Assembly (NCBI GenBank): GCA_027310825.1 | Contig: DAIDAC010000001.1 | Location: forward strand, 132,695 to 196,694 | Reading direction: 5' to 3' | Length of the DNA stretch: 64,000 nt | DNA from: Candidatus Micrarchaeaceae archaeon | GTDB taxonomy: Archaea > Micrarchaeota > Micrarchaeia > Micrarchaeales > Micrarchaeaceae | Shown here: positions 29,059-44,181 of the stretch, piece by piece | How positions within the stretch are numbered: position 1 is the stretch's first letter | How the letters are laid out: every line of letters starts with the position of its first letter | Translations under genes and position numbers: made by a program | The notes under the pieces: generated by a model | Told to the model about the DNA's origin: nothing | Database searches by the model: none | What the model saw: only the letters and a program-made list of their open reading frames with translations

Positions 29059-29109
29059 TAGGTAACTATATTCTTTTGAATATGCATTATGAATATAAGG
29101 AGTGAAAAA

Positions 29110-32067
29110 ATGGTCGCAATTAAAAAAATAGGCGATTTTCTTTGGGAAGTGGAGAAGAAAGAGAATCCAGAAATGAGGGTGCCAGTCCACATATATGCAA
29201 ATGAGGCCATAAAGAACAGCGTCGGAAAAGACAGAACACTGACCCAGGCAATAAATGCGGCAAAGCTCCCCTCGATTGTTAAACATATGCTTCTGATGCC
29301 TGACGCACATGAAGGGTATTCTTTTCCCATAGGAGGTGTTGCTGCATTCGATGCAGATGAAGGAATAATAGCTCCCGGAGCGGTAGGCTATGACATAAAC
29401 TGCCTTTTGCCAGGTACTCCAGTAGTTGACATCTATGGGGCCGCACACGTAATAGAAAAACTCTATACAGAAAATGTTGGGCTACAGACCTTTGATAGTA
29501 GTAAGAAAGAAATTGTAAAATCAAATGTGGTTCTGTATATGAAAAGGAAAGAACAAAACAACGTGCTCAGAATTAGAACCACGTTAGGAAATAAATTATA
29601 CGTTACAAAAGACCATCCTGTACTAACGCAACGTGGCATGGTTTTAGCAAAAGACCTGAAAAATGATGATAAGTTGATTGTAAAAGGCTGGGTTGGGGTA
29701 AAATATGAAAAGCCCGAGCATAAGTTACTTTTATCAGAACCAGAGTTATGCAGAGCGATGGGTTTATTTGGAATAGAGGATAAGGGAAATGGAAAGGCGC
29801 AGGTACTTGCTACATTGAGACGTCTAAATCTGAATGTGCTCTATTTTGATTCAGAAAAGCTACCATTGCTTATAAAGCTGATGGGCTTTGTATTTGGAGA
29901 TGGCACGATACCAAAACGTAGTAAAAAAGGTGCAATAACTACTGCATTTTATGGTAAAAAGGAGGATTTAGAAGACATTGCAAAGGATATTACCAGCTTG
30001 GGATTCAAATCTTCAATGAATAAAAGGTCAAGACATCACCACATAAAGACAATATACGGCACCAGAGAATTTGATTTTGAAGAACATTCATTACAAGTTG
30101 GATCCGGTGCATTTGCAACTCTGCTAATGGCACTAGGTACCCCTTTTGGAAAGAAGGCAAGTAAAAGATATAATGTGCCTCAATGGATTCTGGACGCAAA
30201 AAAATGGCAGAAGAGGTTATTTCTTGCAGCATATTTTGGGGCTGAACTGTCAAAACCCAGAACTGTGCCAAACGATATTAATTTCCAAGTGCTGACAGTA
30301 AATGTAAGTAAATTAGTAAGCCTGGAGGGCAATGCGATAGAGTTTCTTAGGGCTATAAAATTGCTTTTGAGTTCTATGGACATCGAGACGGGCGAACCTT
30401 CAAGGGTAGAGGGTTACAGATACGACGGTGTAGACGGTCAGAGCATCGGCAACAGAATATCAATATTATCAAATACTGAAAACCTTAAAAAGTTCTTTGG
30501 CACTGTTGGATATCTGTACAACAGAGAGAAAGAGAGATTGGCTAGCCTAGCATATATCTACTTAAATTATTTAGAACATATCAGGGATGTTTTAGATACA
30601 ACACGACGGACAGCATATACACTTCATAATTCTTTGGGTGCACCGCTTAAGGAAGTGATGCAGCTCTTAGTCGCTGAAGGCGTAACAAAGAGTTTTGTTG
30701 TACATTCAGCGCAGAAAAGAATCGGGCCTGCAAGAATTTGGAACGGCGCAGAAAAGTTCAGCACATTTTCTGCTACCTGTGAAGTTGGACAAAGCGGATT
30801 AACGTTTAGTGATATCACTACAATAGACGAAATCCCATACCGTGGCGATGTTTATGACATTACTGTAGACGATGAAAACCATAATTTCATAGCGGGTGGT
30901 TATGTAGTTTCAAATTGTGGTATCCGAGTCATCAAAACGAATCTTTCCGAGAAAGAGGTAAGACCAAAGCTACCGAAGCTCATGGATGCACTCTTCAAGA
31001 ATGTACCAAGCGGGGTCGGAAGCAAAAATAGTTTGGGATTCACGCCAAAGGATTTAGATAGAATTGCAGTGGATGGAATTGATTACGTTATTGCGAAAGG
31101 CTTCGGAGTAAAGGATGATATTGAGCACACGGAAGAATATGGGAAAATAGCAGGAGCAGATCCTGAAAAAGTGAGCGATCTTGCGAAGAAGAGAGGATTA
31201 CAGCAACTTGGTACTCTTGGTGCAGGAAACCATTTTGCAGAAGTGCAAAAGATTGACAAGATACTCGACAGCGCTACTGCGAAGGCTTTTGGCCTCGAAG
31301 ATGACCAGGTAGTCGTGATGCTACACAGCGGTTCTCGTGGATATGGGCATCAGGTTTGTAGCGACTATCTTAGGATATGTGATGCCTATCTTAACAAGCA
31401 TAATATAAAGCCGCCTGATCCGGAACTGATGTATGTACCAATTGGAACTCGAGAAGCTGATGATTATCTCGCAGGAATGAAATCTGCAATCAACTTTGCA
31501 TTTGCAAACAGGCAGATAATGATGCACTTCGTCAGGAAGAGCTTTGAAGAGACATTCGATAAGAGCGCTGATGCACTTGGGATGGATCTTCTCTACGACC
31601 TGTCACACAATATAGTAAAACTTGAGGAGCACACTGTCGATGGCAAAAGGAGAAAGGTTTACGTTCACAGAAAGGGCGCAACACGTGCATTCGCGCCCGG
31701 AAGAAAGGAAATACCGAAGGCTTATCGCGATGTCGGGCAACCCGTTCTCATTCCTGGAAGCATGGGCACAGCAAGTTACATCCTTGCAGGAAGAGAAGGC
31801 AGCATGACAGAAACATTCGGGTCCTCTTGCCACGGAGCAGGAAGAGTTATGTCAAGGCACCAGGCCCTCCGTGAAATACCGGCGGCAAAGACGCTCGGCT
31901 CCATGGAAGACAAAAAGATTGCAATAAGAGTCCGCGACAAGAAACTGGTCAGCGAAGAAGCAGAGTGGGCCTATAAAGACGTTGATGAAGTGGTGAGAAG
32001 CGTCGAAGGTGCAGGGCTTTGCGCTGCAGTGGCGAGGCTTGTTCCGCTTGGAGTGGCAAAAGGCTAA
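29110..32067 (+). CDS. rtcB: RNA-splicing ligase RtcB with in-frame intein
   Basis: RtcB joins tRNA halves and other RNAs with 2',3'-cyclic phosphate ends, using Mn2+ and GTP. After removal of a 505-residue intein (29401-30915) the ligase is 480 residues, the family size. Ligase motifs: PDAHEGYSFPIGG, GAVGYDIN|CGIRV interrupted at the metal-binding Cys, GAGNHFAEVQ, HSGSRGYGHQ, DLSHN and HRKGATRAF with the guanylylated His. AGGAGTGA precedes ATG 29110; the ATG at 29089 is an alternative. It likely completes splicing of archaeal intron-containing tRNAs. Confidence 0.95.
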   Translation: MVAIKKIGDFLWEVEKKENPEMRVPVHIYANEAIKNSVGKDRTLTQAINAAKLPSIVKHMLLMPDAHEGYSFPIGGVAAFDADEGIIAPGAVGYDINCLLPGTPVVDIYGAAHVIEKLYTENVGLQTFDSSKKEIVKSNVVLYMKRKEQNNVLRIRTTLGNKLYVTKDHPVLTQRGMVLAKDLKNDDKLIVKGWVGVKYEKPEHKLLLSEPELCRAMGLFGIEDKGNGKAQVLATLRRLNLNVLYFDSEKLPLLIKLMGFVFGDGTIPKRSKKGAITTAFYGKKEDLEDIAKDITSLGFKSSMNKRSRHHHIKTIYGTREFDFEEHSLQVGSGAFATLLMALGTPFGKKASKRYNVPQWILDAKKWQKRLFLAAYFGAELSKPRTVPNDINFQVLTVNVSKLVSLEGNAIEFLRAIKLLLSSMDIETGEPSRVEGYRYDGVDGQSIGNRISILSNTENLKKFFGTVGYLYNREKERLASLAYIYLNYLEHIRDVLDTTRRTAYTLHNSLGAPLKEVMQLLVAEGVTKSFVVHSAQKRIGPARIWNGAEKFSTFSATCEVGQSGLTFSDITTIDEIPYRGDVYDITVDDENHNFIAGGYVVSNCGIRVIKTNLSEKEVRPKLPKLMDALFKNVPSGVGSKNSLGFTPKDLDRIAVDGIDYVIAKGFGVKDDIEHTEEYGKIAGADPEKVSDLAKKRGLQQLGTLGAGNHFAEVQKIDKILDSATAKAFGLEDDQVVVMLHSGSRGYGHQVCSDYLRICDAYLNKHNIKPPDPELMYVPIGTREADDYLAGMKSAINFAFANRQIMMHFVRKSFEETFDKSADALGMDLLYDLSHNIVKLEEHTVDGKRRKVYVHRKGATRAFAPGRKEIPKAYRDVGQPVLIPGSMGTASYILAGREGSMTETFGSSCHGAGRVMSRHQALREIPAAKTLGSMEDKKIAIRVRDKKLVSEEAEWAYKDVDEVVRSVEGAGLCAAVARLVPLGVAKG
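29401..30915 (+). mobile_element. Intein with LAGLIDADG homing endonuclease in RtcB
   Basis: 505 residues between DIN and CGIRV of RtcB. Block A begins with Cys1 (CLLPGTPV), block B has the TxxH motif (VTKDHPVL), and blocks F/G are VYDITVDDENHNFIAGG and VVSN followed by Cys+1. The middle holds two LAGLIDADG-like motifs (LIKLMGFVFGDG and LFLAAYFGAEL). The penultimate residue is Ser where His is usual. Codon use is AT-richer than in the ligase parts, consistent with horizontal origin. Confidence 0.93.
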
Positions 32068-32741: not shown

Positions 32742-32966
32742 ATGGTGTCAAGTGACCCGATGTTCGCTGTTGCGGCCGCTATCGCAATAGCAGGAGGTTT
32801 GATAGGAACTGGAATAGCGCAGCAAGGGATAGGTGCAGCCGGTATGGGAATTATCGGCGAGAAGCCAGAAAAGTTCGGACAAGTTCTGTTCTTCTTCGTC
32901 ATACCTGAAACCCTTTGGATAGTCGGTTTCGTGCTTGGACTGATACTGTTGCTGCAGATACTGTAA
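32742..32966 (+). CDS. atpK: A-type ATP synthase subunit K (rotor c-ring proteolipid)
   Basis: 74 residues folding as one hairpin of two membrane helices. Helix 1 has the Gly/Ala pattern GGLIGTGIAQQGIGAAGMG; helix 2 carries the ion-binding glutamate in VIPETLWIVGF near residue 56. The short 8-kDa form means a ring of many copies. Whether it carries protons or Na+ cannot be decided. First gene of the operon, with GGTGA six bases before ATG 32742; a strong hairpin follows its stop. Confidence 0.93.
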   Translation: MVSSDPMFAVAAAIAIAGGLIGTGIAQQGIGAAGMGIIGEKPEKFGQVLFFFVIPETLWIVGFVLGLILLLQIL

Positions 32967-33012: not shown

Positions 33013-33579
33013 ATGGGACTGGAAGAGATTATCTCAAACATAGAAGGGGATACGAAGGCTAAGGTAAACAAGATACTAGATGATGCAAAGGCCGAAGCCG
33101 TCAAAGTTCGGCAAAATGCCCTGAAAGACGCAGAAGAATACACTGCGGACATGGCGGCGCGTGCCCAAACAGAAGTAAATCAGCTTATGGCGAGAGAGCA
33201 GTCTAGATCAGACATAGAGGCAAAACAGATATACAATAACACGGTCAACAAGACGATCGACGATGCCCTAAATGTAATAAAATCAAACCTGGCCAGCTAT
33301 GCTAAGAGCGAGCAGTACCAAAAGCTTCTTTCAAAGCTTGCAGACCGCGCAGTGAAACAGCTCGGGAACGATTGCATAATATCGGCAACGAAAGCAGACG
33401 TTGCAAAGCTCGCAAAGGGCAAGCTCAAGGCAAAGGTCGTAGAGAGCGATGAAGATTTCTCTGGAGGAATAAAGGCAGTGTCTGAAGATGGGGCGATGTC
33501 TGTCGACTATTCGCTCGAGTCGTTGGTCAATGGAATGAACAACGATCTTGTCACCCAGCTCATGAAACTTATAAAGTGA
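33013..33579 (+). CDS. atpE: A-type ATP synthase subunit E (peripheral stalk)
   Basis: 188 residues: a long charged coiled-coil helix (about 1-95, ILDDAKAEAVKVRQNALKDAEEY) and a C-terminal globular domain (DFSGGIKAVSEDGAMSVDYSLESL) of the VatE family. With subunit H it forms the stator stalk holding the A3B3 head. The gene lies 46 bases after atpK and one base before atpC. Confidence 0.93.
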   Translation: MGLEEIISNIEGDTKAKVNKILDDAKAEAVKVRQNALKDAEEYTADMAARAQTEVNQLMAREQSRSDIEAKQIYNNTVNKTIDDALNVIKSNLASYAKSEQYQKLLSKLADRAVKQLGNDCIISATKADVAKLAKGKLKAKVVESDEDFSGGIKAVSEDGAMSVDYSLESLVNGMNNDLVTQLMKLIK

Positions 33580-33580
33580 A

Positions 33581-34645
33581 ATGGAAATGGAAGGAACTTA
33601 CATAGGATCTTATGGCAGGCTACGTGTGCTGAGACCTGATTTCCTTAGCTCGAACTTTATAGAACAGCTCGACGGCAAGAGCGGCGATGACTTTGTCAAG
33701 GCCCTTAGCGGCACAAGCTACAGAAAGGAGCTCGATTCGCTTTCTGGGCTTTACAAACTTCCGGACTTGGTTGAAGTTGTAATAAATTCGCACATGATGC
33801 GCATGATAAACAGTGCGCTGTTCGCACTTCCTCCACAGGCCAGGGCAGTAATCTCTGCTTACATGGGAAGATGGGACATAGAAAACATCGAGACCATTTT
33901 GTCGTCAAAGCAGCTTGGCTACAATTTGGAATCGACAGAGGCATTCATCACGACAGGAAGAAACATACCGGTCGGTCTCTTCGGAGGAATGATAAAGCGA
34001 GAGGACTACATCAGCATGATAAGCCAGAAGGACATAGAGGGAGTAGTCAATTATCTTGTCAAGTTCGGCTACGGGAGAGTTCTGCTCAAGCATCTCGACG
34101 AAGTGAAAAAGGGCGGAGACATAAGCGGAATGGTTCTCGACCTTGATCTATATTATTATGGAAAGCTTCTTGAAAATTTCAAGTTCCAGCAGGGAACAGA
34201 GGGCAAACTGCTCAGCTACATAAAGGAGCTGATCGACGTTAAGAACATAATCACAGTGCTCAAGAGCGTAGAATTCGGATACAAGGACTCGAAGGACTTC
34301 ATAATCAAGGGCGGAAAGATTCCGGAGGCGAAGCTTCTAGAGATGGCCAACGCTAAGGACATATTTGCGATGAAGGAGCTTATTCCCTACAAAATCGACG
34401 ATGCGTTCGAGGCTTACAAGAACGATCCATTCATAACATACTTCGACGTCGCGCTCAAGCGCGAGCTTTACAAGAGATATCTCAAGGTGTTCGAGCTGTC
34501 TATGGAGCTCGAGTTCATAATGGGGTTCATAATCAGGGCAGAGATAGAAAGGAATGAGCTGCGTGCAGTATGGCTCAGCAGCTACTACAAAGTCAGCAAG
34601 AACAGGGCAGAACAGATGAAAGTACTCAAGTATATTGGTGCGTAA
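33581..34645 (+). CDS. atpC: A-type ATP synthase subunit C (central stalk to rotor adaptor)
   Basis: 354 residues, all helical, of the V-type AC39/subunit d family; it docks the central stalk on the c-ring. Features include YIGSYGRLRVLRPDFL at the N-terminus, AYMGRWDIENIETIL and DVKNIITVLKS, the repeated DxxNI pattern of the family. Separated from atpE by one base and directly followed by atpF. Confidence 0.92.
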   Translation: MEMEGTYIGSYGRLRVLRPDFLSSNFIEQLDGKSGDDFVKALSGTSYRKELDSLSGLYKLPDLVEVVINSHMMRMINSALFALPPQARAVISAYMGRWDIENIETILSSKQLGYNLESTEAFITTGRNIPVGLFGGMIKREDYISMISQKDIEGVVNYLVKFGYGRVLLKHLDEVKKGGDISGMVLDLDLYYYGKLLENFKFQQGTEGKLLSYIKELIDVKNIITVLKSVEFGYKDSKDFIIKGGKIPEAKLLEMANAKDIFAMKELIPYKIDDAFEAYKNDPFITYFDVALKRELYKRYLKVFELSMELEFIMGFIIRAEIERNELRAVWLSSYYKVSKNRAEQMKVLKYIGA

Positions 34646-34981
34646 ATGAAATTCGAGAGCATTGCAGTAATCGGCGAACGCGAACTTGCGCTTGGCTTCA
34701 AGTTGGTGGGAGTCAAAGACGTTTTCATAGCTGACGGCAAAGAGGCGGTGAAGACATTCGTAGACTTGATGAACAGCAAGACTTACAACCTTATAATGAT
34801 ATCCGAGAGCATAAAGCAATCGATGGAGCTCGGCACGCTCAGGCTTGCAGAGACTTCGATAAGCCCGCTTGTCGTCTTCGTCCCTCTTCCAGGAATAGAA
34901 AAAGCTGGAGAGAGCGTAGAGGCGCTTGCGAAGAGGATTCTCGGAGTTGATCTAAAAGGCATGAAAGGTGCAGCGAAATGA
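34646..34981 (+). CDS. atpF: A-type ATP synthase subunit F (central stalk)
   Basis: 111 residues with the VatF Rossmann-like pattern: [27 protein letters not shown], and [11 protein letters not shown]. It sits with subunit D in the central shaft. The ATG follows the atpC stop immediately and its end overlaps atpA by 4 bases. Confidence 0.93.
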
Positions 34982-36729
34982 GCGGAATAATAAATAGAAT
35001 ATCAGGACCAGTCGCATATGTAGTTAATCTGGAGAACGCGAGGATGTACGACGTAGTCAGAGTCGGAACAGAGCAGCTTGTCGGAGAAATAATCAAGCTT
35101 GATCACGGAAAGGCGATAGTCCAAGTTTACGAAGACACGACAGGAGTACGCCCAGGAGAGCCGGTGGTCAACACAGACACACAGCTTTCTGTTCTGCTTG
35201 GCCCAGGGCTTCTTACATCGATTTACGACGGAATTCAAAGACCGCTCGACAAGATCAAGGAGAAGAGCGGAGACTTCATAGCGAGGGGAGTCAACGTAGA
35301 GCCTCTCGACACAAAGAAAAAGTGGGAGTTCGAGCCTATCATGAAGAAGGGTGCGGATGTCCACGAAGGAGACATACTCGGGACTGTCGATGAAACAAGC
35401 ATAATTAAGCATAAGGTTCTTGTCCCGATTGGAATCCATGGAACCATCGAAAGCATAAGCTCAGGAAAGTTCACAGTCGAAGAAACCGTTGCAGTAGTCA
35501 AGACAAAAGAGGGAAAGAAAGAGATACAGCTTTCGCAGAGATGGCCGGTCAGAATCCCAAGACCTGTAAAGAACAAGCTTCCGCCAAACGTACCGCTCAT
35601 AACAGGACAGAGAGTGCTCGACACGCTATTCCCGGTTGCAAAAGGAGGAACTGCAGCAATACCCGGACCATTCGGATCAGGAAAGACAGTGGCGCAGCAG
35701 CAGCTAGCGAAGTGGTCTGACGCAGAAATCGTCGTCTACGTCGGTTGCGGAGAGCGAGGAAACGAAATGACAGAAGTTCTCAAGGAGTTCCCTAAGCTGA
35801 AGGACCCGAAGACAGGAAAGCCGCTTATGGAACGAACAGTGCTTATCGCAAACACATCGAACATGCCAGTAGCAGCGAGAGAAGCCAGCATTTACACTGG
35901 AATAACCATCGCGGAGTACTATCGTGACATGGGATACAACGTAGCGCTCATGGCAGACAGCACATCAAGATGGGCTGAAGCTCTCAGAGAAATTTCTGGA
36001 AGACTTGAAGAAATGCCTGGAGAAGAGGGTTATCCTGCTTATTTGGGAAGAAAAGTCGCAGAGTTCTACGAGCGGGCAGGCCGTGTCAACGTAATGAACG
36101 GCGCAATCGGCTCAATCACTGCAATCGGAGCAGTATCACCTCCTGGAGGAGACACATCTGAACCGGTGTCGCAGAACACACTCAGAGTCACAAGAGTATT
36201 TTGGGCTCTCGACGCATCGCTTGCAAACAAGAGACACTTCCCGTCGATAAACTGGCTGACGAGCTATTCGCTTTACACCGATGACCTCAAGCAGTGGTAT
36301 CAGCAGAATGTGAACAAGGAATGGATTGAACTTTATGCTACGTCAATGGAATTGCTGCAGAAAGAGGCAGAAATCAACGAAATAGTGCAGCTTGTCGGAT
36401 ACGACGCGCTTCCAGAAAAGGAGAAAATGGTTCTCGACATCGCAAAAGTCATAAGAGAAGACTATCTTCAGCAGAGCGCATACGACGATGTCGACACATA
36501 TTCATCGATGAACAAGCAGTATCTGATGCTCAAGTCGATAATGCGCCTCTATGAAGAAGAGAGAAGCGCAGTGGACAGAGGAGTTCCTGTTGAGCGGTTC
36601 CAGGGAATAGATGCAAAGGTCAAGATTGCAAAGATGAAGTACACTCCAGAGCAGAACATCGAGAAGTACTACGAAGATCTAGGAAGGGCAATCGAAGAGA
36701 TAAGCGGCATGACCGCTGAGGCAAAGTAG
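34978..36729 (+). CDS. atpA: A-type ATP synthase catalytic subunit A
   Basis: 583 residues, full length. It binds and hydrolyses or makes ATP. P-loop GPFGSGKT near residue 230 carries the serine-containing GPFGSGKT form typical of archaeal A subunits; GERGNEM holds the catalytic Glu near 260; [13 protein letters not shown] near 335 and [15 protein letters not shown] follow. The non-homologous insert (residues about 110-185) typical of A subunits is present. ATG overlaps the atpF stop. Confidence 0.96.
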
Positions 36730-36737
36730 GTGAGCAA

Positions 36738-38267
36738 ATGAGCGATGTATATTACAAAACAGTAAAGCAAGTAACAAGCGTATTGCTTTTCGTGGAAGGG
36801 GTAAAGGATGCAGGCTACAACGAACTTGTAGAAGTGCAGCTTCCGGATGGAAGAAGGGTTACAGGACAGGTGCTTGACAGCAGGGACGGCCTGGCCATCG
36901 TCCAGTCATTCGGAGAGACAAGAGGAGTAGACATAGAGAACACAAAGGTAAGATTCCTCGGAGAGACGATGAAACTTCCAGTCAGCGAAGAGATGCTTGG
37001 AAGAGTTTTCGACGGAGTGGGAAGGCCGAGAGACGGAGGGCAACCTGTCTACAGCGACACAAAGCTCGACATAACCGGCAGCGCAATCAACCCTGCTTCA
37101 AGAGAGGAGCCAAGCGAATTCATTCAAACAGGCATATCAACGATCGACGTCATGAACACACTGGTTCGTGGGCAGAAGCTTCCAATTTTCTCAGGTTCTG
37201 GACTTCCACACAACAAGCTTGCGGCTCAGATAGCCAGACAAGCGAAACTGCGCAACTCGAAGGAAGGTTTCGCAGTCGTGTTCGGGGGAATCGGAATCAA
37301 CAGTGAAGAAGTAAACTTCTTCAAGAAGGAATTCGAGGAGAGCGGTGCGCTTGACAACTCTGTGCTTTTCTTGAACCTATCGAGCGAGCCTTCTATGGAA
37401 AGAGTAATTCTGCCAAGGCTTGCGCTGACAACAGCAGAGTATCTTGCCTACGAAAAGAACATGCACGTGCTCGTCATACTTACAGATATGACAAACTACT
37501 GCGAAGCACTCAGAGAAATCTCAGCTGCAAGAGAAGAGGTTCCTGGAAGAAGAGGATATCCCGGATACATGTATACCGACCTCTCGACGATTTACGAGCG
37601 AGCAGGAAAGATCCATGGACGACAGGGATCGATCACGCAGATACCAATTCTAACTATGCCTGGAGACGACATAACGCACCCGATACCTGACCTTACCGGT
37701 TACATCACAGAAGGCCAGGTTGTGCTCGGAAGAGACCTCCAAAGGCGAGGAGTATATCCGAACATAGACGTTCTCGTGTGCTTGTCGCGACTTATGAACA
37801 ACGGAATAGGAAAGGGCAAGACAAGAGAAGACAACCGTGGAGTAGCAGACCAGCTTTTCGCGGCGTATGCTCGCGGAAAAGAGGTAAGAAGCCTCATCGA
37901 AATAGTCGGAGAAGAGGCGTTGAGCGCTAACGACAGGAAGTATCTGCACTTCGCAGACATGTTCGAGTCGAAGTACGTTAACCAGGATTATTACGAAGAC
38001 AGAAACGTCGACAAGTCTCTAGATTTGGGATGGGAGCTGTTCAGCATGCTCGACAAGAACGACATGAAGCGTCTCAAGGACGAATTCATACAGAAGTACG
38101 GCCAGTGGGACCACAAAAGAGAGCAGCACAGCGAAGAGATAGCTGAGATGGTTGCAAAGGCAAAGCCTGAAGAAGAATTGGAGAATGCAAAGAAGCCGCC
38201 GGCAGCATCAGCTCCGGCAGGAAAGGGCAAAGACAAGGGTAAGAAGGATGGCGCAAGGAAACATTAA
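36738..38267 (+). CDS. atpB: A-type ATP synthase regulatory subunit B
   Basis: 509 residues. Non-catalytic nucleotide-binding partner of A; its P-loop is degenerate (FSGSGLPHN near residue 152), as normal for B. Also seen: [36 protein letters not shown]. The last 35 or so residues are a low-complexity Lys/Ala/Pro tail ([21 protein letters not shown]), longer than in most archaeal B subunits. GGTGA precedes ATG 36738. Confidence 0.95.
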
Positions 38268-38880
38268 GACAACACGGCTCGAGATGATAAAGACGAAGGC
38301 TCGCATAAAGGTAGCTTCGAAAGGGCTCGACCTCCTCAAGCTCAAGAGAGCAAGCCTTGTCCTCGAATTCTTCAAGCTCGCGCGTGAGATCCAGCTTCTG
38401 AGAGGCAACCTCAAGGAAAGCGTGCAGAGAGCCATGGACAGCATGAAGATTGCCGAGATCCATGCCGGAAGAATCGGACTCGAGAGGATTGCGGCCGAGC
38501 AGCAGCCAGTGCTTGCAGGAGTAGAGGCTAAGAACGTCATGGGAGTGCGAATCCCTAACGTCAACATCGAATCGAGATATGTTCCATCTGTGGCCTACGA
38601 ACTGATTTCCGTACCTACTGCAGTAGAAGACTCACGAAGAAATTACAAAAAGCTGTTCCAACTGCTGATCGAAGTTGCAGAGAAGGAAAGCTCGCTCAGA
38701 AAACTGCTTTATGAAATAGAAAAGCTCAACAGGAGGTCAAACGCCATCGAAAACGTGGTCATTCCAGGGCTAAAGGCAAAGGTTGTTTACATCAAGCAGA
38801 GGCTTGAAGATGCAGAGCGAGACCAGACGGTGTCTCTCAAGTTCATAAAGAGGAAGCTCGCGGCTTCGGCGATGGTGTGA
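38248..38880 (+). CDS. atpD: A-type ATP synthase subunit D (central shaft)
   Basis: 210 residues forming a long two-helix coiled coil, with the N-terminal [26 protein letters not shown] typical of VatD, and [21 protein letters not shown] near the C-terminus. ATG 38248 lies inside the end of atpB (20-base overlap), with AAGGATG context; the longer frame to 38152 only shadows atpB. Confidence 0.94.
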
Positions 38881-38884
38881 TTTC

Positions 38885-39013
38885 ATGAGCATCTACAAAA
38901 ATGATTATGCAGACATCCAAGTTCGAAAGTTCAGAAGAGTCAAGCTTGTGCTTTCGATGGCGAAGATCGCCGCAATAGTGATCGCGGCAGTGCTTGTGAC
39001 AAAATTGGTTTAG
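38885..39013 (+). CDS. 42-residue single-pass membrane protein in the ATP synthase operon
   Basis: Reads MSIYKNDYADIQV, a basic stretch RKFRRVK, then a hydrophobic segment (LVLSMAKIAAIVIAAVLV) and ends TKLV. The ATG lies four bases after the atpD stop with GTGAT three bases upstream, the same ribosome-binding arrangement as many genes here; the stop is followed after 8 bases by the atpH ATG. It fits tightly between two ATP synthase genes with no spare sequence. By the positive-inside rule the N-terminus is cytoplasmic. I know no standard archaeal ATP synthase subunit of this kind; it might be an assembly factor or small a/c-ring accessory subunit. Confidence 0.72.
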   Translation: MSIYKNDYADIQVRKFRRVKLVLSMAKIAAIVIAAVLVTKLV

Positions 39014-39021
39014 GTGTATCT

Positions 39022-39342
39022 ATGTCGGAAAAAGTTGAAACTCTTGTAAAGATAAAAAAGGTGGAAGAAGAGGCTACTTCGAAGGTGGATGTGGCGACGG
39101 CGAAGGCCGGAGAGATGACGGAGGCGGCGAAGAGGGAGGTAGAAGCAATAATGAGCGAAGCCGAGCTTGCTGCCGATGCCAACTATGTCAAGGTAATCGA
39201 GAAGGCCAAGAAGGAGGCGGCGCGTATCCACAACGACATGATTGAGGATGCGAAGAAGAGAGCCAGCAGGATAAAGCCGATAGGCAAAGAATCCGCAATA
39301 TCGATTTTCACAAAGCTGATTGGAAAGCGCTTTGGTGTATGA
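39022..39342 (+). CDS. atpH: A-type ATP synthase subunit H (peripheral stalk)
   Basis: 106 residues, a coiled coil rich in Ala, Glu and Lys (VETLVKIKKVEEEATSKVD, AKKEAARIHNDMIEDAKKRA), which pairs with subunit E in the stator stalk. The C-terminal IGKESAISIFTKLIGKRFGV is slightly hydrophobic. GGTGT precedes ATG 39022, and the stop directly abuts the atpI start. Confidence 0.85.
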   Translation: MSEKVETLVKIKKVEEEATSKVDVATAKAGEMTEAAKREVEAIMSEAELAADANYVKVIEKAKKEAARIHNDMIEDAKKRASRIKPIGKESAISIFTKLIGKRFGV

Positions 39343-41271
39343 ATGTTTAAACCGGCTGAGATGAAGAAGATAAGGCTGGCCATCCACAGCAGATATTTTA
39401 GCGATGCCGTCTCTGCTCTGCAGGATACAGGTGTAGTGCAGGTTGAAGCCCTTCCGGAGACTACAAGAGCGCTTCTGAAGCCAGGCGAGGCTACAGAGGC
39501 AAAAAGGATCAGCGACTATACACAAAGATTCAGAGGACTGAACAGCCTTCTTTACACAAGGCCAAACCACATGAAATACGGGTTTGAAAGCATAGAGCAG
39601 CTTATTGCAGAGGCGGATGCGATACCAATAGACGCCAGAGTCTCCACTATCAGAAAAGAGCTCGACACGATCATGGCCAGGCTCAAGGAAAACCAATCAA
39701 CGCTTACGCTCTTGGGAAGAATGCAGGGATTCACGCACGACGTTTCAATACTCAACACAAAGAACATAATCTCGTTCATCGTCTACGGCGAGCACCTCAA
39801 GGAGTTCGACGCAGCGGTGACAAAGAAGCTTAAGGACATAATCAGGATCGACCTCGGCAAGTCGATAATATACAGCATGAAGAAAGGGCACGAGAAAGAC
39901 TTCGGAACTGCAGGGGAGAAGCAGAAGGTGACAGTAGAATTCGTGCCGGAGATGCACGGGACAGTGGCAATGGCTGAGAAAGAGCTCAGGAACAGCACCA
40001 TAATGCTGAACGACAGGAAGATCGGGCTTGAGGCAGAGCTTTCGCAGTTGTCTGACAATTATTATCCGCTTGTAAGCGCGATACGGGAGCAGCTCGACAT
40101 AGAAACTGAGAAGCTCGAGATAACAAGCAAGCTCGGAGTCACAGACAGCGTAGTTGTGCTCGAAGGATGGGTTCCAGAAAACGAGCTCAAGAAAGTCGAG
40201 ACGCTCATAAAGAAGGTAACCAATGGAAGATATGTGCTTGAGCACATCGAGACAAATGAACTGCCGCCGACGCTTATGCAGAATCCGGTCACGTTCAAGC
40301 TGTTCGAGCATTTCGTGAAGTTCTATTCGCTCCCACAGAGCACAGAAGTAGATCCTACAATAATATTTGCAATGGCGTTCCCGATTTTCTTCGGGCTAAT
40401 GGTCGGAGACGTTGGCTACGGAGCGATTATGTTGGGGCTTGCGCTGTTCATATTGCATAGATTGAACCATCCGCCGAAGAAGAGCCATCTTCCAAAGGCG
40501 ATAACAGGATTCATAAGCGGAATAGTCAGTCCAACAGGGCTAAGGATACTTGCGAAGTCGATAATTCCGGGATCGGTTCTTGCAATAATACTTGGCGTCA
40601 TATTCAATGAATGGTTTGGCTTCCAGATGCCGTACGCGACTCCTTTCGACGTGAAACTCAATCTCGCGAAACTGCTTGTCATAGCAGGATGGATAGGAGT
40701 GACCATGGTCTGCGGAGGATTCATACTTGGATTCCTCAACAACTGGGCAAACCGACACAGAGGGCATGCAATTGCGAAGTTGGGATGGCTTGCAGCAGCG
40801 ATAGGCTTCGTGATACTTGGGCTCAATGTTCTGCACAGGGCAGACATGGGGCTTGACAACCCTTTCGCGGTCGCATCTTACATTTTGCTTGTAGTAGGAA
40901 TAATCACTGTGATCAAGTTTGAAGGGGCGAAGGGAATAATGGAGCTTCCTTCTCTGATAAGCCACATACTTTCCTACACCAGACTTGTGGGAATACTGCT
41001 CGCCTCTGCGATACTTGCAGAAGTTATAGACTTTGTCTTCCTCGGGGCATGGCACCATTCATTGCTCTTGGGGATAGTTGGAACGATTATCTTGATACTT
41101 GGCCAGCTCTTCAACATAGTAATCGCGATGTTCGAGCCTGGAATACAAGGAGCGAGGCTTATCTATGTTGAATTCTTCTCGAAGTTCTTCTCAGGAAACG
41201 GACGACCATTCAAGCCGTTCGCGACGCAGAGACTGCATACTCTGACTAAGTTCAAGCTCGAGAATGAGTAA
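39343..41271 (+). CDS. atpI: A-type ATP synthase subunit I (membrane stator a subunit)
   Basis: 642 residues: a cytoplasmic N-terminal half (about 1-335) and a membrane half with seven to eight helices. The essential channel arginine lies in SYTRLVGILLASAILAEV near residue 547. FGLMVGDVGYG near residue 353 is another family hallmark. Last gene of the operon; its end overlaps the convergent hydrolase gene by 20 bases. Confidence 0.94.
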   Translation: MFKPAEMKKIRLAIHSRYFSDAVSALQDTGVVQVEALPETTRALLKPGEATEAKRISDYTQRFRGLNSLLYTRPNHMKYGFESIEQLIAEADAIPIDARVSTIRKELDTIMARLKENQSTLTLLGRMQGFTHDVSILNTKNIISFIVYGEHLKEFDAAVTKKLKDIIRIDLGKSIIYSMKKGHEKDFGTAGEKQKVTVEFVPEMHGTVAMAEKELRNSTIMLNDRKIGLEAELSQLSDNYYPLVSAIREQLDIETEKLEITSKLGVTDSVVVLEGWVPENELKKVETLIKKVTNGRYVLEHIETNELPPTLMQNPVTFKLFEHFVKFYSLPQSTEVDPTIIFAMAFPIFFGLMVGDVGYGAIMLGLALFILHRLNHPPKKSHLPKAITGFISGIVSPTGLRILAKSIIPGSVLAIILGVIFNEWFGFQMPYATPFDVKLNLAKLLVIAGWIGVTMVCGGFILGFLNNWANRHRGHAIAKLGWLAAAIGFVILGLNVLHRADMGLDNPFAVASYILLVVGIITVIKFEGAKGIMELPSLISHILSYTRLVGILLASAILAEVIDFVFLGAWHHSLLLGIVGTIILILGQLFNIVIAMFEPGIQGARLIYVEFFSKFFSGNGRPFKPFATQRLHTLTKFKLENE

Positions 41272-41861: not shown

Positions 41862-42359
41862 TCAGACTGCTTTCTCTATCACAGTTCCTATCACAGTGTG
41901 TGGGAATCCTGTCTGTATCTGCGTGTAGTTCACAAGCAAATATCCGCGATATATCTGCCCGGATGATATAGCAAGCGTAGTTCCGTTCTGGTAGCAGATA
42001 GCGTTGAATACATAGTTGCCGCCTATCCCGACAGTTGCTGGAGGAGAGACCGACTGCATGAACTGTATTGTTCCTTGGTTGTTGCAGCCTACTGCGGTTA
42101 TGTTTATGTTTGATGGAAGCGCCTGCTGAAGGTTCACTGCAATGCTGCTGTTTGTCGAGTACAGAATTGACGACAAGCATGAGAACTCTGCCGGGAATAA
42201 GCATTGTGTGCTGACTACGCTGTTGGGGCTGAAAAGCCCAAGCTGGAACAGCGCAGCTAGCACTACTGCTATGACTATTATCGCCCATCCGTACGTCGTA
42301 AGATACTCGATTGCGCTTTGCGCCTTTATGCTAGGATTGCCGGTCGTCTGGCTGTCCAT
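41862..42359 (-). CDS. Prepilin-like surface protein with class III signal
   Basis: 165 residues. The N-terminus has a short basic leader (KAQSAIEYLTTYGW) followed by a hydrophobic helix AIIVIAVVLAALFQLGLF, the pattern cut by archaeal prepilin peptidase (PibD) before assembly. The external part has three to four cysteines and several N-glycosylation sequons (NSS, NIT, NGT, NYT). ATG 42359 is chosen; upstream residues to 42398 are not pilin-like. It is related at its N-terminus to the two LamG prepilins in the window. Confidence 0.8.
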   Translation of the reverse strand: MDSQTTGNPSIKAQSAIEYLTTYGWAIIVIAVVLAALFQLGLFSPNSVVSTQCLFPAEFSCLSSILYSTNSSIAVNLQQALPSNINITAVGCNNQGTIQFMQSVSPPATVGIGGNYVFNAICYQNGTTLAISSGQIYRGYLLVNYTQIQTGFPHTVIGTVIEKAV

Positions 42360-42401
42360 CAAAGACAATAAGAAAACAAGGAATAAAAAGGTATGCAATG
42401 G

Positions 42402-43265
42402 CTATGGAGCCGTATACCCGCTCTGCCAGGAACTGCTGTAGCCAATGTTTGTGGTTGCGCCGTTATTGTTGTTTCCACTGTAGTCATTAGGATTGCCGTT
42501 TAGTGGCCACCACCCCACAAGGTTCTGGGGACGTACCGGTGCCCCTCCAATCCCCTCTTGATAGAGCGCAAGGACCTCGGCAGCCGTAAGAGTTGTGTTG
42601 TAGATTTGGACGTTGGACAAAGAGTATGATGCAAACGTGCCTAACCCGGCTGATGATCCAAATGACCAGCCATTCCCATATTGCGCTTGGACGAATATGC
42701 CAGATTTTGAGTTCTGACCTACCTGAGAGCCGTTGAGGTATAGAGTTACTACTGTAGGGTTTTGCGAGAATGTTCCCGCGACAAATACCCAAGTGCCAGT
42801 AGTTACTGTTGGTCCTGGAGCAGCTAATTCGGTTACACCGTTGTACACGGCAAATTGATAGAAATCAGGAGCGCTGGCTTGAGCAAAAAGCAGTGGAAAG
42901 TCGTGGCCTCCTGTTGGACCCGGAGCAACTATGCCGATGTTTGTGCTGGCCGGAACATTTTTCCAGTTGACCCATGCAGTCATCGATATCGGGCCAGTAA
43001 TCGCGTACTGCGAAATCTCTGGGACAATCACGTTGCCTGCGCCATTGAACACTGCAACAAATTTGGGCTGAAGTCCTTGACATTCGCCCACTAATGAAGA
43101 GCCTGATGACGTAGTCTCTACTTGGCAAGAGCCTGCGGTTGCGGTGTTCCCGTAATTGCTTCCTGAAAAAACGCCAAGTTGGAAAAGAACCGCAAGAACA
43201 ACAGCGATAATAAGGATTGCCCATCTGTATGTCATCAAGTATTCCATTGCAGACTGCGACTTCAT
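42402..43265 (-). CDS. Prepilin-like protein with LamG (concanavalin-like) domain
   Basis: 287 residues. Class III signal MKSQSAMEYLMTYRW and hydrophobic helix, then a CQVE...GECQ disulfide pair, and a LamG/ConA-like lectin domain at about 75-250 (ISMTAWVNWKN, TVVTLYLNGSQVG, LSNVQIYNTTLTAAEV). The C-terminal cap GIGGAPVRPQNLVGWWPLNG and DYSGNNNNG is nearly identical to the copy at 57.8 kb. It probably forms pili or a sticky surface layer that binds glycans. It follows moxR on the same strand. Confidence 0.85.
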   Translation of the reverse strand: MKSQSAMEYLMTYRWAILIIAVVLAVLFQLGVFSGSNYGNTATAGSCQVETTSSGSSLVGECQGLQPKFVAVFNGAGNVIVPEISQYAITGPISMTAWVNWKNVPASTNIGIVAPGPTGGHDFPLLFAQASAPDFYQFAVYNGVTELAAPGPTVTTGTWVFVAGTFSQNPTVVTLYLNGSQVGQNSKSGIFVQAQYGNGWSFGSSAGLGTFASYSLSNVQIYNTTLTAAEVLALYQEGIGGAPVRPQNLVGWWPLNGNPNDYSGNNNNGATTNIGYSSSWQSGYTAP

Positions 43266-43269
43266 GCAA

Positions 43270-44181
43270 TCAGTGTAAAGTTGCAATAATTCCGTCTATG
43301 ATGCCGTTGACGCCAAGCCCTCCTGTCGACTTTACCACTATCCTGTGGCTCAGTATAGGCCTTGCAAGGCTCTTTATGTCGTCGATAGTGACGCTCTTCC
43401 TTCCTTCGATTAGAGCCTTTGCCTTCCCTGCTCTCATGAACGCGATCTCTGCCCTTGGGCTTCCACCCATGACGACGTGTATGTCCGTTCTTGTGGCGTT
43501 TACCACCTGCGTTATGTATTCGACTATGTCGTCTGACATGGTTATGCTGTTGACCATGCCCTGATAAGCTAGTATGTCATCGGTGTTGATGACCTTCTGT
43601 GTTGGAGTCTGGGATTCCTGCTCTTTTATTCGAAGCATCTGCTGTTCCTCTTCCATGCTTGGATACGACACTGCTATCCTCATCAGAAATCTGTCAGTCA
43701 GCACCTTTGGAAGCGGGTTCGTACCTTCTATGTTGAGCGGGTTCTGGGTCGCGAACGCTACGAATGGCCTCTTGAGCGGAAGGCTTTCGTTGCCCATCGT
43801 CACCTGGCGCTCCTCAAGAGCCTCTAGCAGCGCCGTCGTAGTCCTTGGCGGCGCTCGGTTGAGTTCGTCGACAAGTAGAAGGTTTGTGAAGATCGGCCCT
43901 TTTTTCAATTGAACGTTGTTGCTGTCATCGATGTATGAATAGCCGATTATGTCCTTTATTGCAAGGTCTGGAGTTCCCTGTATTCTTCCGAACTCCGCCT
44001 GCACTGCATCGGCGAGAGTCTTCGTCATTGTTGTCTTCGCCACTCCTGGCACTCCTTCAAGAAGGACGTGGCCGTTAGCTACCATTGCTATGAACATAAG
44101 TTCGATTATCTCTTCTTTTCCGGCTATGTGCTTCTTTACCTCTTTCAGGACTGCTTTGTACGCCTCGGACGGATTCATCAT
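43270..44181 (-). CDS. moxR: MoxR-family AAA+ ATPase
   Basis: 303 residues. Walker A EGVPGVAKT near residue 42, Walker B LLLVDELNRAPP near 104, and ATQNPLNIEGT as sensor 1 near 145, the MoxR/RavA pattern. MoxR ATPases act as chaperones for protein complexes, usually next to DUF58 and VWA genes, which are absent here. Instead the next gene on the strand is a LamG prepilin, suggesting a link to surface structure assembly. Start ATG 44181 (or 44178) after GTGAT. Confidence 0.88.
   Translation of the reverse strand: MMNPSEAYKAVLKEVKKHIAGKEEIIELMFIAMVANGHVLLEGVPGVAKTTMTKTLADAVQAEFGRIQGTPDLAIKDIIGYSYIDDSNNVQLKKGPIFTNLLLVDELNRAPPRTTTALLEALEERQVTMGNESLPLKRPFVAFATQNPLNIEGTNPLPKVLTDRFLMRIAVSYPSMEEEQQMLRIKEQESQTPTQKVINTDDILAYQGMVNSITMSDDIVEYITQVVNATRTDIHVVMGGSPRAEIAFMRAGKAKALIEGRKSVTIDDIKSLARPILSHRIVVKSTGGLGVNGIIDGIIATLH

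What the first reader, a model, noticed from the sequence alone, without database searches (positions are those of the whole stretch)
38885..39013. Hidden 42-residue membrane protein inside the ATP synthase operon
A complete short gene sits between atpD and atpH with 4 and 8 bases of spacing, its own GTGAT ribosome-binding site three bases before ATG, and a basic stretch followed by a single membrane helix. I know of no A-type ATP synthase subunit like it. It could be an overlooked accessory subunit or assembly factor of a lineage-specific ATP synthase.
Basis: partly seen in the sequence, partly recalled or inferred. Interest (0 to 1): 0.72.

Follow-up and report, generated by a model that had tools for sequence, protein, structure and literature searches.

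The report
Overlooked tiny subunit of archaeal ATP synthase
Acid-loving archaea from three phyla carry, inside the gene cluster for their ATP-making enzyme, a very short gene for a 32-78-residue membrane protein that no family library names, so the enzyme probably has a part (or an assembly helper) that has been missed.

Summary
Window 38885-39013 (+) is a 42-codon ORF, 4 bases after atpD and 8 before atpH, with a GGTG(TGAT) ribosome-binding site and one predicted membrane helix. In atp operons of order K-E-C-F-A-B-D-s-H-I, a small one-helix ORF fills the D-H gap in 45/45 Micrarchaeota loci, 47/49 Thermoplasmata and 2/6 Parvarchaeota-like loci. A profile built only from Thermoplasmata finds the window ORF at E=2.8e-8; in 85 whole Micrarchaeaceae genomes its best 28 hits all lie next to atpD. 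dN/dS is 0.22 (0.18-0.27), equal to that of atpH. Conserved: [KR]-F-x-x-[IV]-(7)-[NKR], the F in 94% and the last residue in 97%. No Pfam, NCBIfam or PDB relative was found. The place after D is that of ahaG in Methanosarcina and Methanothermobacter, a 6.3-kDa product never settled as a subunit and reported absent from Thermoplasma; homology to AhaG could not be tested. Most likely it is a small membrane subunit, or a retained assembly factor, of the acidophile-type ATP synthase; its exact site is a guess.

The parts
38885..39013 (+). the small gene (here 's'): 42 aa, single membrane helix (AlphaFold helix 7-41), motif K15-F16-x-x-V19-(7)-K27
38874..38881 (+). GGTGTGAT, ribosome-binding-site-like, overlapping the atpD stop codon
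   Evidence: read from the sequence
38248..38880 (+). atpD, subunit D (central rotor shaft); start inferred at ATG 38248
   Evidence: Pfam ATP-synt_D E=3e-47
39022..39342 (+). atpH, peripheral-stalk subunit H
   Evidence: weak AhaH match, E=0.0008, below the model's cut-off; position and charged helical composition
39343..41271 (+). atpI, subunit a
   Evidence: Pfam V_ATPase_I E=1.8e-28
32742..32966 (+). atpK, c subunit, single hairpin
   Evidence: Pfam ATP-synt_C E=3.4e-12
33013..33579 (+). atpE
   Evidence: ORF; same gene order found by tblastn in related operons
33581..34645 (+). atpC, subunit C (rotor cap on the c-ring)
   Evidence: ORF
34646..34981 (+). atpF
   Evidence: ORF
34978..36729 (+). 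atpA, catalytic subunit
   Evidence: ORF
36738..38267 (+). atpB
   Evidence: ORF

Best explanation
The ORF is a protein-coding gene for a small membrane component of the acidophile-type archaeal A/V-type ATP synthase. It is made just after subunit D, probably by translational coupling: in 87 of 94 loci its start codon lies before the end of atpD. It inserts as one helix with its basic N-terminus in the cytoplasm. The conserved F and I/V lie at the cytoplasmic membrane surface, and the conserved Asn/Lys/Arg sits about one and a half turns into the membrane; together they probably make the contact with the enzyme. I think it is most likely a permanent single-copy subunit of the membrane sector close to the rotor (for example a helix in the lumen of the c-ring beneath subunits C and D). 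A retained assembly factor for docking D/C on the c-ring is the next best reading. Shown: gene, conservation, selection, linkage to atpD. Predicted: helix. Inferred: orientation (positive-inside rule), coupling. Guessed: being a permanent subunit, and the site. The confidence given is for 'component (subunit or dedicated assembly factor) of this ATP synthase'.
For: Present between atpD and atpH in 94/99 non-redundant loci of this operon type in Micrarchaeota, Thermoplasmata and Parvarchaeota-like archaea. A profile of Thermoplasmata sequences alone puts window:38885-39013 at E=2.8e-8 among 13193 ORFs, and the listed hits are atpD neighbours; in 85 whole genomes the first 28 hits are all at atpD, the first elsewhere at E=0.012 (positions compared). 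dN/dS 0.216 (95% CI 0.177-0.265; 935 codons, 21 pairs, atpD overlap removed) against 0.21 for atpH and 0.078 for atpD. F in 94/100 and N/K/R at F+11 in 97/100, with no gap between. The atpD tree puts the 99 operons of this order on one side of one branch (support 0.91) with Micrarchaeota inside the Thermoplasmata, so the gene is kept with the operon across phyla. A clade with the ordinary order (D last) also has a homologue right after D, so the gene follows D, not H.
Against: No protein or complex has been seen. The gene is missing in four Parvarchaeota-like genomes and one Thermoplasmata genome with the same gene order (one further Thermoplasmata locus keeps only a short form), so the enzyme can do without it. 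81 relatives with D last in the operon have no small membrane ORF behind D, nor, in the 13 such operons examined in full, elsewhere in the operon, apart from three TTG-start ORFs that look spurious. The one-sided helix face is only weakly significant (p=0.04). The c-ring site rests on analogy alone.
Confidence: 0.82

Rival explanations
1. A dedicated assembly factor: a small membrane protein that holds subunit C/D or the c-ring during assembly and then leaves, so it would not be in the finished enzyme.
For: Small size, fast change outside the motif, dispensable in some lineages; coupling to the last rotor gene would suit an assembly step.
Against: Constraint equals that of the structural subunit H, and coupling to atpD suggests a fixed ratio. 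Neither is decisive.
Confidence: 0.3
2. A small subunit at the outer edge of subunit a / the c-ring (a place like that of subunits e and f of the eukaryotic V-ATPase) rather than on the rotor axis.
For: Eukaryotic Vo has small membrane subunits e, f and Voa1 besides a, c and d (PMC10352029); atpI lies two genes downstream here.
Against: In the ordinary operon order the homologue still sits after D with atpI at the other end, so linkage is to D.
Confidence: 0.25
3. It is the acidophile form of AhaG, i.e. one family with the 6.3-kDa product encoded after ahaD in methanogens (compatible with the subunit and assembly-factor readings).
For: Same place after D, similar size, a very hydrophobic stretch reported for AhaG (PMC4350412); H-I-K-E-C-F-A-B-D-G (PMC3087415) rotated is K-E-C-F-A-B-D-G-H-I. 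Canonical Thermoplasmatota operons have another 40-67-residue one-helix family after D (FDTPEKKA motif), a possible link.
Against: The two families found here do not align significantly (hhalign probability 6.6-18%). No methanogen AhaG sequence was reachable.
Confidence: 0.45
4. A chance ORF: an intergenic spacer that happens to be open.
For: Short, and without a model in the family libraries searched.
Against: Cross-phylum profile match, dN/dS of 0.22 and a presence of 94/99.
Confidence: 0.01

Closest known systems
AhaG of Methanosarcina mazei (and the ahaG of Methanothermobacter)
   Same: Small, partly hydrophobic product encoded directly after subunit D in the ATP synthase operon (PMC4350412, PMC3087415).
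   Different: Sequence not available here, so homology is untested. AhaG was reported absent from Thermoplasma acidophilum and the acid-mine-drainage Thermoplasmatales (PMC3750248), whereas the present family is found in Thermoplasmatales.
Family B of this report: FDTPEKKA proteins after atpD in canonical operons of Thermoplasmatota
   Same: 40-67 aa, one helix, basic stretch before it, directly after atpD.
   Different: Conserved FF(D)TPEKKA stretch and aromatic helix; no significant sequence match to the window family.
Eukaryotic V-ATPase small membrane subunits e, f (RNaseK) and Voa1/Ac45
   Same: Works-like analogy: extra small or single helices in the membrane sector of a related rotary ATPase (PMC10352029).
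   Different: No sequence match among PDB chains; e and f have two helices and Voa1 is far larger (own knowledge).
Acidophile 'V-type-like' atp operon of Wang et al. 2019 (PMC6863869)
   Same: Probably the same horizontally moved operon class, reported there for Thermoplasmatales, Micrarchaeota, Parvarchaeota, Marsarchaeota and Nitrosotalea.
   Different: They count nine subunits; in the passages read, no further small gene is mentioned.

Membership tests
AhaG (subunit G of methanogen A1Ao) | gene directly downstream of the subunit D gene | tested here: met
AhaG (subunit G of methanogen A1Ao) | small protein with one very hydrophobic stretch | tested here: met
   AhaG description from PMC4350412
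AhaG (subunit G of methanogen A1Ao) | sequence homology to AhaG | not testable with these tools
   no Methanosarcina or Methanothermobacter sequence could be reached; no Pfam/NCBIfam model
Family B (FDTPEKKA) of canonical Thermoplasmatota operons | sequence homology (profile-profile) | tested here: not met
   hhalign probability 18.5% over one column, 6.6% over 35 columns; cross hmmsearch at most 8 bits
s family (acidophile operon, defined here) | [KR]-F-x-x-[IV] followed by N/K/R at F+11 inside the helix, without gaps | tested here: met
   window has K15-F16, V19 and K27; Thermoplasmata-only profile E=2.8e-8
s family (acidophile operon, defined here) | located between atpD and atpH-atpI | tested here: met
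ATP synthase subunit (stable component of the enzyme) | protein present in the purified complex | not testable with these tools
   needs mass spectrometry or cryo-EM
ATP synthase c subunit (atpK type) | helical hairpin with ion-binding carboxylate | tested here: not met
   one helix, no acidic residue in its hydrophobic part

The most novel reading that the evidence does not exclude
Archaeal A-type ATP synthases in general carry an unrecognised single-helix subunit encoded right after subunit D. It exists in at least two sequence families (the acidophile s family and the FDTPEKKA family) that do the same job, such as filling the c-ring lumen under the central shaft, the way extra helices occupy the V-ATPase ring in eukaryotes.
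Probability: 0.3. Interest if true: 0.85.

Novelty: new variant of a known kind. Interest (0 to 1): 0.64.

Why it matters
The archaeal ATP synthase is taken to have a settled list of about nine subunits. A gene held under the same selection as subunit H across three phyla, in every Micrarchaeota operon of this type examined and in contigs whose lengths match the culturable model Thermoplasma, says the list is incomplete for the acidophile type. It also reopens the old AhaG question with a testable sequence signature and a culturable organism. It may bear on how these cells keep a rotary enzyme tight and assembled against a steep pH gradient.

Tried and rejected
Single-sequence search with the 42-mer: weak hits, yet several lay at atpD, which led to the position-based survey. 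Linkage to atpH rather than atpD: rejected, since a clade with atpD last in the operon keeps the ORF after D. Homology with the FDTPEKKA family: not shown. PDB relatives: none for the s family, only chance matches for the other. Pfam and NCBIfam: no model; weak sub-threshold matches differ from member to member. Literature on small archaeal ATP synthase subunits: little beyond AhaG. A first pass at finding subunit I downstream failed on a wrong tblastn option and was redone. A downstream subunit-I scan of the Parvarchaeota-side loci returned nothing, even for a locus known to have it, so that part was not used.

Full report
Observation. atpD ends at 38880, the ORF runs 38885-39013 and atpH begins at 39022; GTGAT stands three bases before the ATG. 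Its product has a basic stretch (net +4 in the 12 residues before the hydrophobic peak) and one hydrophobic segment (KD 2.59). AlphaFold on the family alignment gives one helix, residues 7-41, mean pLDDT 85. The operon is K-E-C-F-A-B-D-s-H-I.

Who carries it. The nearest named records are Candidatus Micrarchaeaceae / Micrarchaeota metagenome assemblies and the genome of Candidatus Micrarchaeum sp. A_DKE. In the window's family, atpD falls in two groups: about 45 genomes at 49-81% identity to the window's and about 26 at about 35%. All the former have a small ORF with one C-terminal helix between atpD and atpH. Beyond the family, the same ORF sits in acidophilic and soil Thermoplasmata, in Thermoplasmatales, and in two Parvarchaeota-like genomes, deposited as Nanoarchaeota. 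Contigs of 1564906 and 1584804 bases (loci L270, L269) have the lengths I remember for Thermoplasma acidophilum and T. volcanium; that naming is from memory, not from a tool. Counted without duplicates, 94 of 99 operons with atpI downstream of atpD have it: 45 of 45 Micrarchaeota, 47 of 49 Thermoplasmata, 2 of 5 Parvarchaeota-like. G039 of the sister family, whose stretch was too short to be classed there, also has this order and the ORF. One of the two Thermoplasmata exceptions, L216, keeps a shorter ORF that still matches the profile at 2.5e-6. A further Parvarchaeota-like locus, L315, has an atpH-like gene at once after atpD and no small ORF, making 2 of 6.

Chance and control. Relatives in the same phylum with atpD last in the operon serve as control: 81 have no such ORF, two have one that looks spurious, and one clade (genus g19) has a true one. 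So the simple criterion gives about 2% false positives against 95% in the operon class.

Homology, not mere resemblance. A profile trained only on Thermoplasmata sequences scores the window ORF at E=2.8e-8 among 13193 ORFs of 1.4 Mb, and the listed hits are atpD neighbours. The converse profile (Micrarchaeota only) finds 28 of 47 Thermoplasmata ORFs at E of 1e-3 or better. In 85 whole genomes the 28 best hits are all at atpD and the first elsewhere has E=0.012 (positions compared). The g19 ORFs, in the ordinary operon order, match the Micrarchaeota profile at 5e-9 to below 0.1, which ties the gene to atpD rather than atpH.

Selection. In 21 pairs (935 codons, atpD overlap removed) dN/dS is 0.216 (0.177-0.265); atpH in the same pairs is 0.21 and atpD 0.078. 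The method is Nei-Gojobori with Jukes-Cantor correction and chosen close pairs, so values are approximate, but they are far from 1.

Anatomy. Over 100 sequences, aligned without gaps from seven residues before to 22 after the key Phe: F 94%, [RK] before it 83%, I/V at +3 78%, and N, K or R at +11 97%. The +11 residue (K27 in the window) lies within the hydrophobic stretch, about 5 residues in from its N-terminal side. Information content has a weak helical period (p=0.04). By the positive-inside rule the N-terminus is cytoplasmic (inference). In 87 of 94 loci the start codon lies before the end of atpD, suggesting translational coupling (inference).

History. In an atpD tree of 219 sequences the 99 operons of this order form one side of one branch (support 0.91), with Micrarchaeota and Parvarchaeota-like sequences together nested inside Thermoplasmata. 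This agrees with the horizontal operon transfer among acidophiles described by Wang et al. (PMC6863869) and with the Micrarchaeota-Thermoplasmata exchange noted in PMC10656485. The small gene was kept through those transfers.

Comparison. The place right after D is that of ahaG (Methanosarcina: PMC4350412; Methanothermobacter operon ahaHIKECFABDG: PMC3087415). AhaG is 6.3 kDa with one very hydrophobic tryptic peptide, and its membership in the enzyme is called an open question. PMC3750248 states that AhaG is missing from T. acidophilum and the acid-mine-drainage Thermoplasmatales; the present family is found at that very place in Thermoplasmatales. Canonical Thermoplasmatota operons carry a second one-helix family after D with the motif FFDTPEKKA(K/R)W (23 of 34 loci, one of them reassigned by eye). 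The two families do not match significantly in sequence, so they may be homologues beyond detection or convergent. Neither has a Pfam or NCBIfam model or a PDB relative.

Function. That it is a gene: about 0.98. That it belongs to the ATP synthase, as subunit or dedicated assembly factor: about 0.82. That it is a permanent subunit: about 0.55. That it lies on the rotor axis, e.g. in the c-ring lumen under C and D: about 0.3; this is a guess from its linkage to D and the analogy with the extra helices of the eukaryotic Vo. Losses in some Parvarchaeota-like genomes show that it is not indispensable.

Noticed in passing
window 29089-32067 (+): 992-codon RtcB (RNA ligase) gene interrupted by an intein: Pfam RtcB plus Intein_splicing over residues 138-609.
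   Followed up: partly
L230-L259, e.g. L243 and L255, directly after atpD: A second small one-helix family with motif FFDTPEKKA(K/R)W in canonical atp operons of Thermoplasmatota, also without a Pfam or NCBIfam model; possibly the AhaG family.
   Followed up: partly
L186, L188, L191, L315 (Parvarchaeota-like), L263 (Thermoplasmata): Same operon order but the small gene is missing between atpD and atpH: apparent losses.
   Followed up: partly
L060-L063, L068 (genus g19 of the window's family): Operon with the ordinary order (I-K-...-D) that nevertheless carries a homologue after atpD; atpD of three of them nests among relatives without it, so the gene was gained or kept separately.
   Followed up: partly
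window 42405-43286 (-) and 41865-42398 (-): Two adjacent proteins with a pilin-like N-terminus (KSQSAMEYLMTYRWAILIIAVVLAVLFQLG / KAQSAIEYLTTYGWAIIVIAVVLAALFQLG), one with a Laminin_G_3 domain: probably surface pilin-like proteins.
   Followed up: no
L300, L310, L311 (DPANN genomes, other gene order after atpD): Other unrelated-looking small one-helix ORFs after atpD, 35-58 aa.
   Followed up: no
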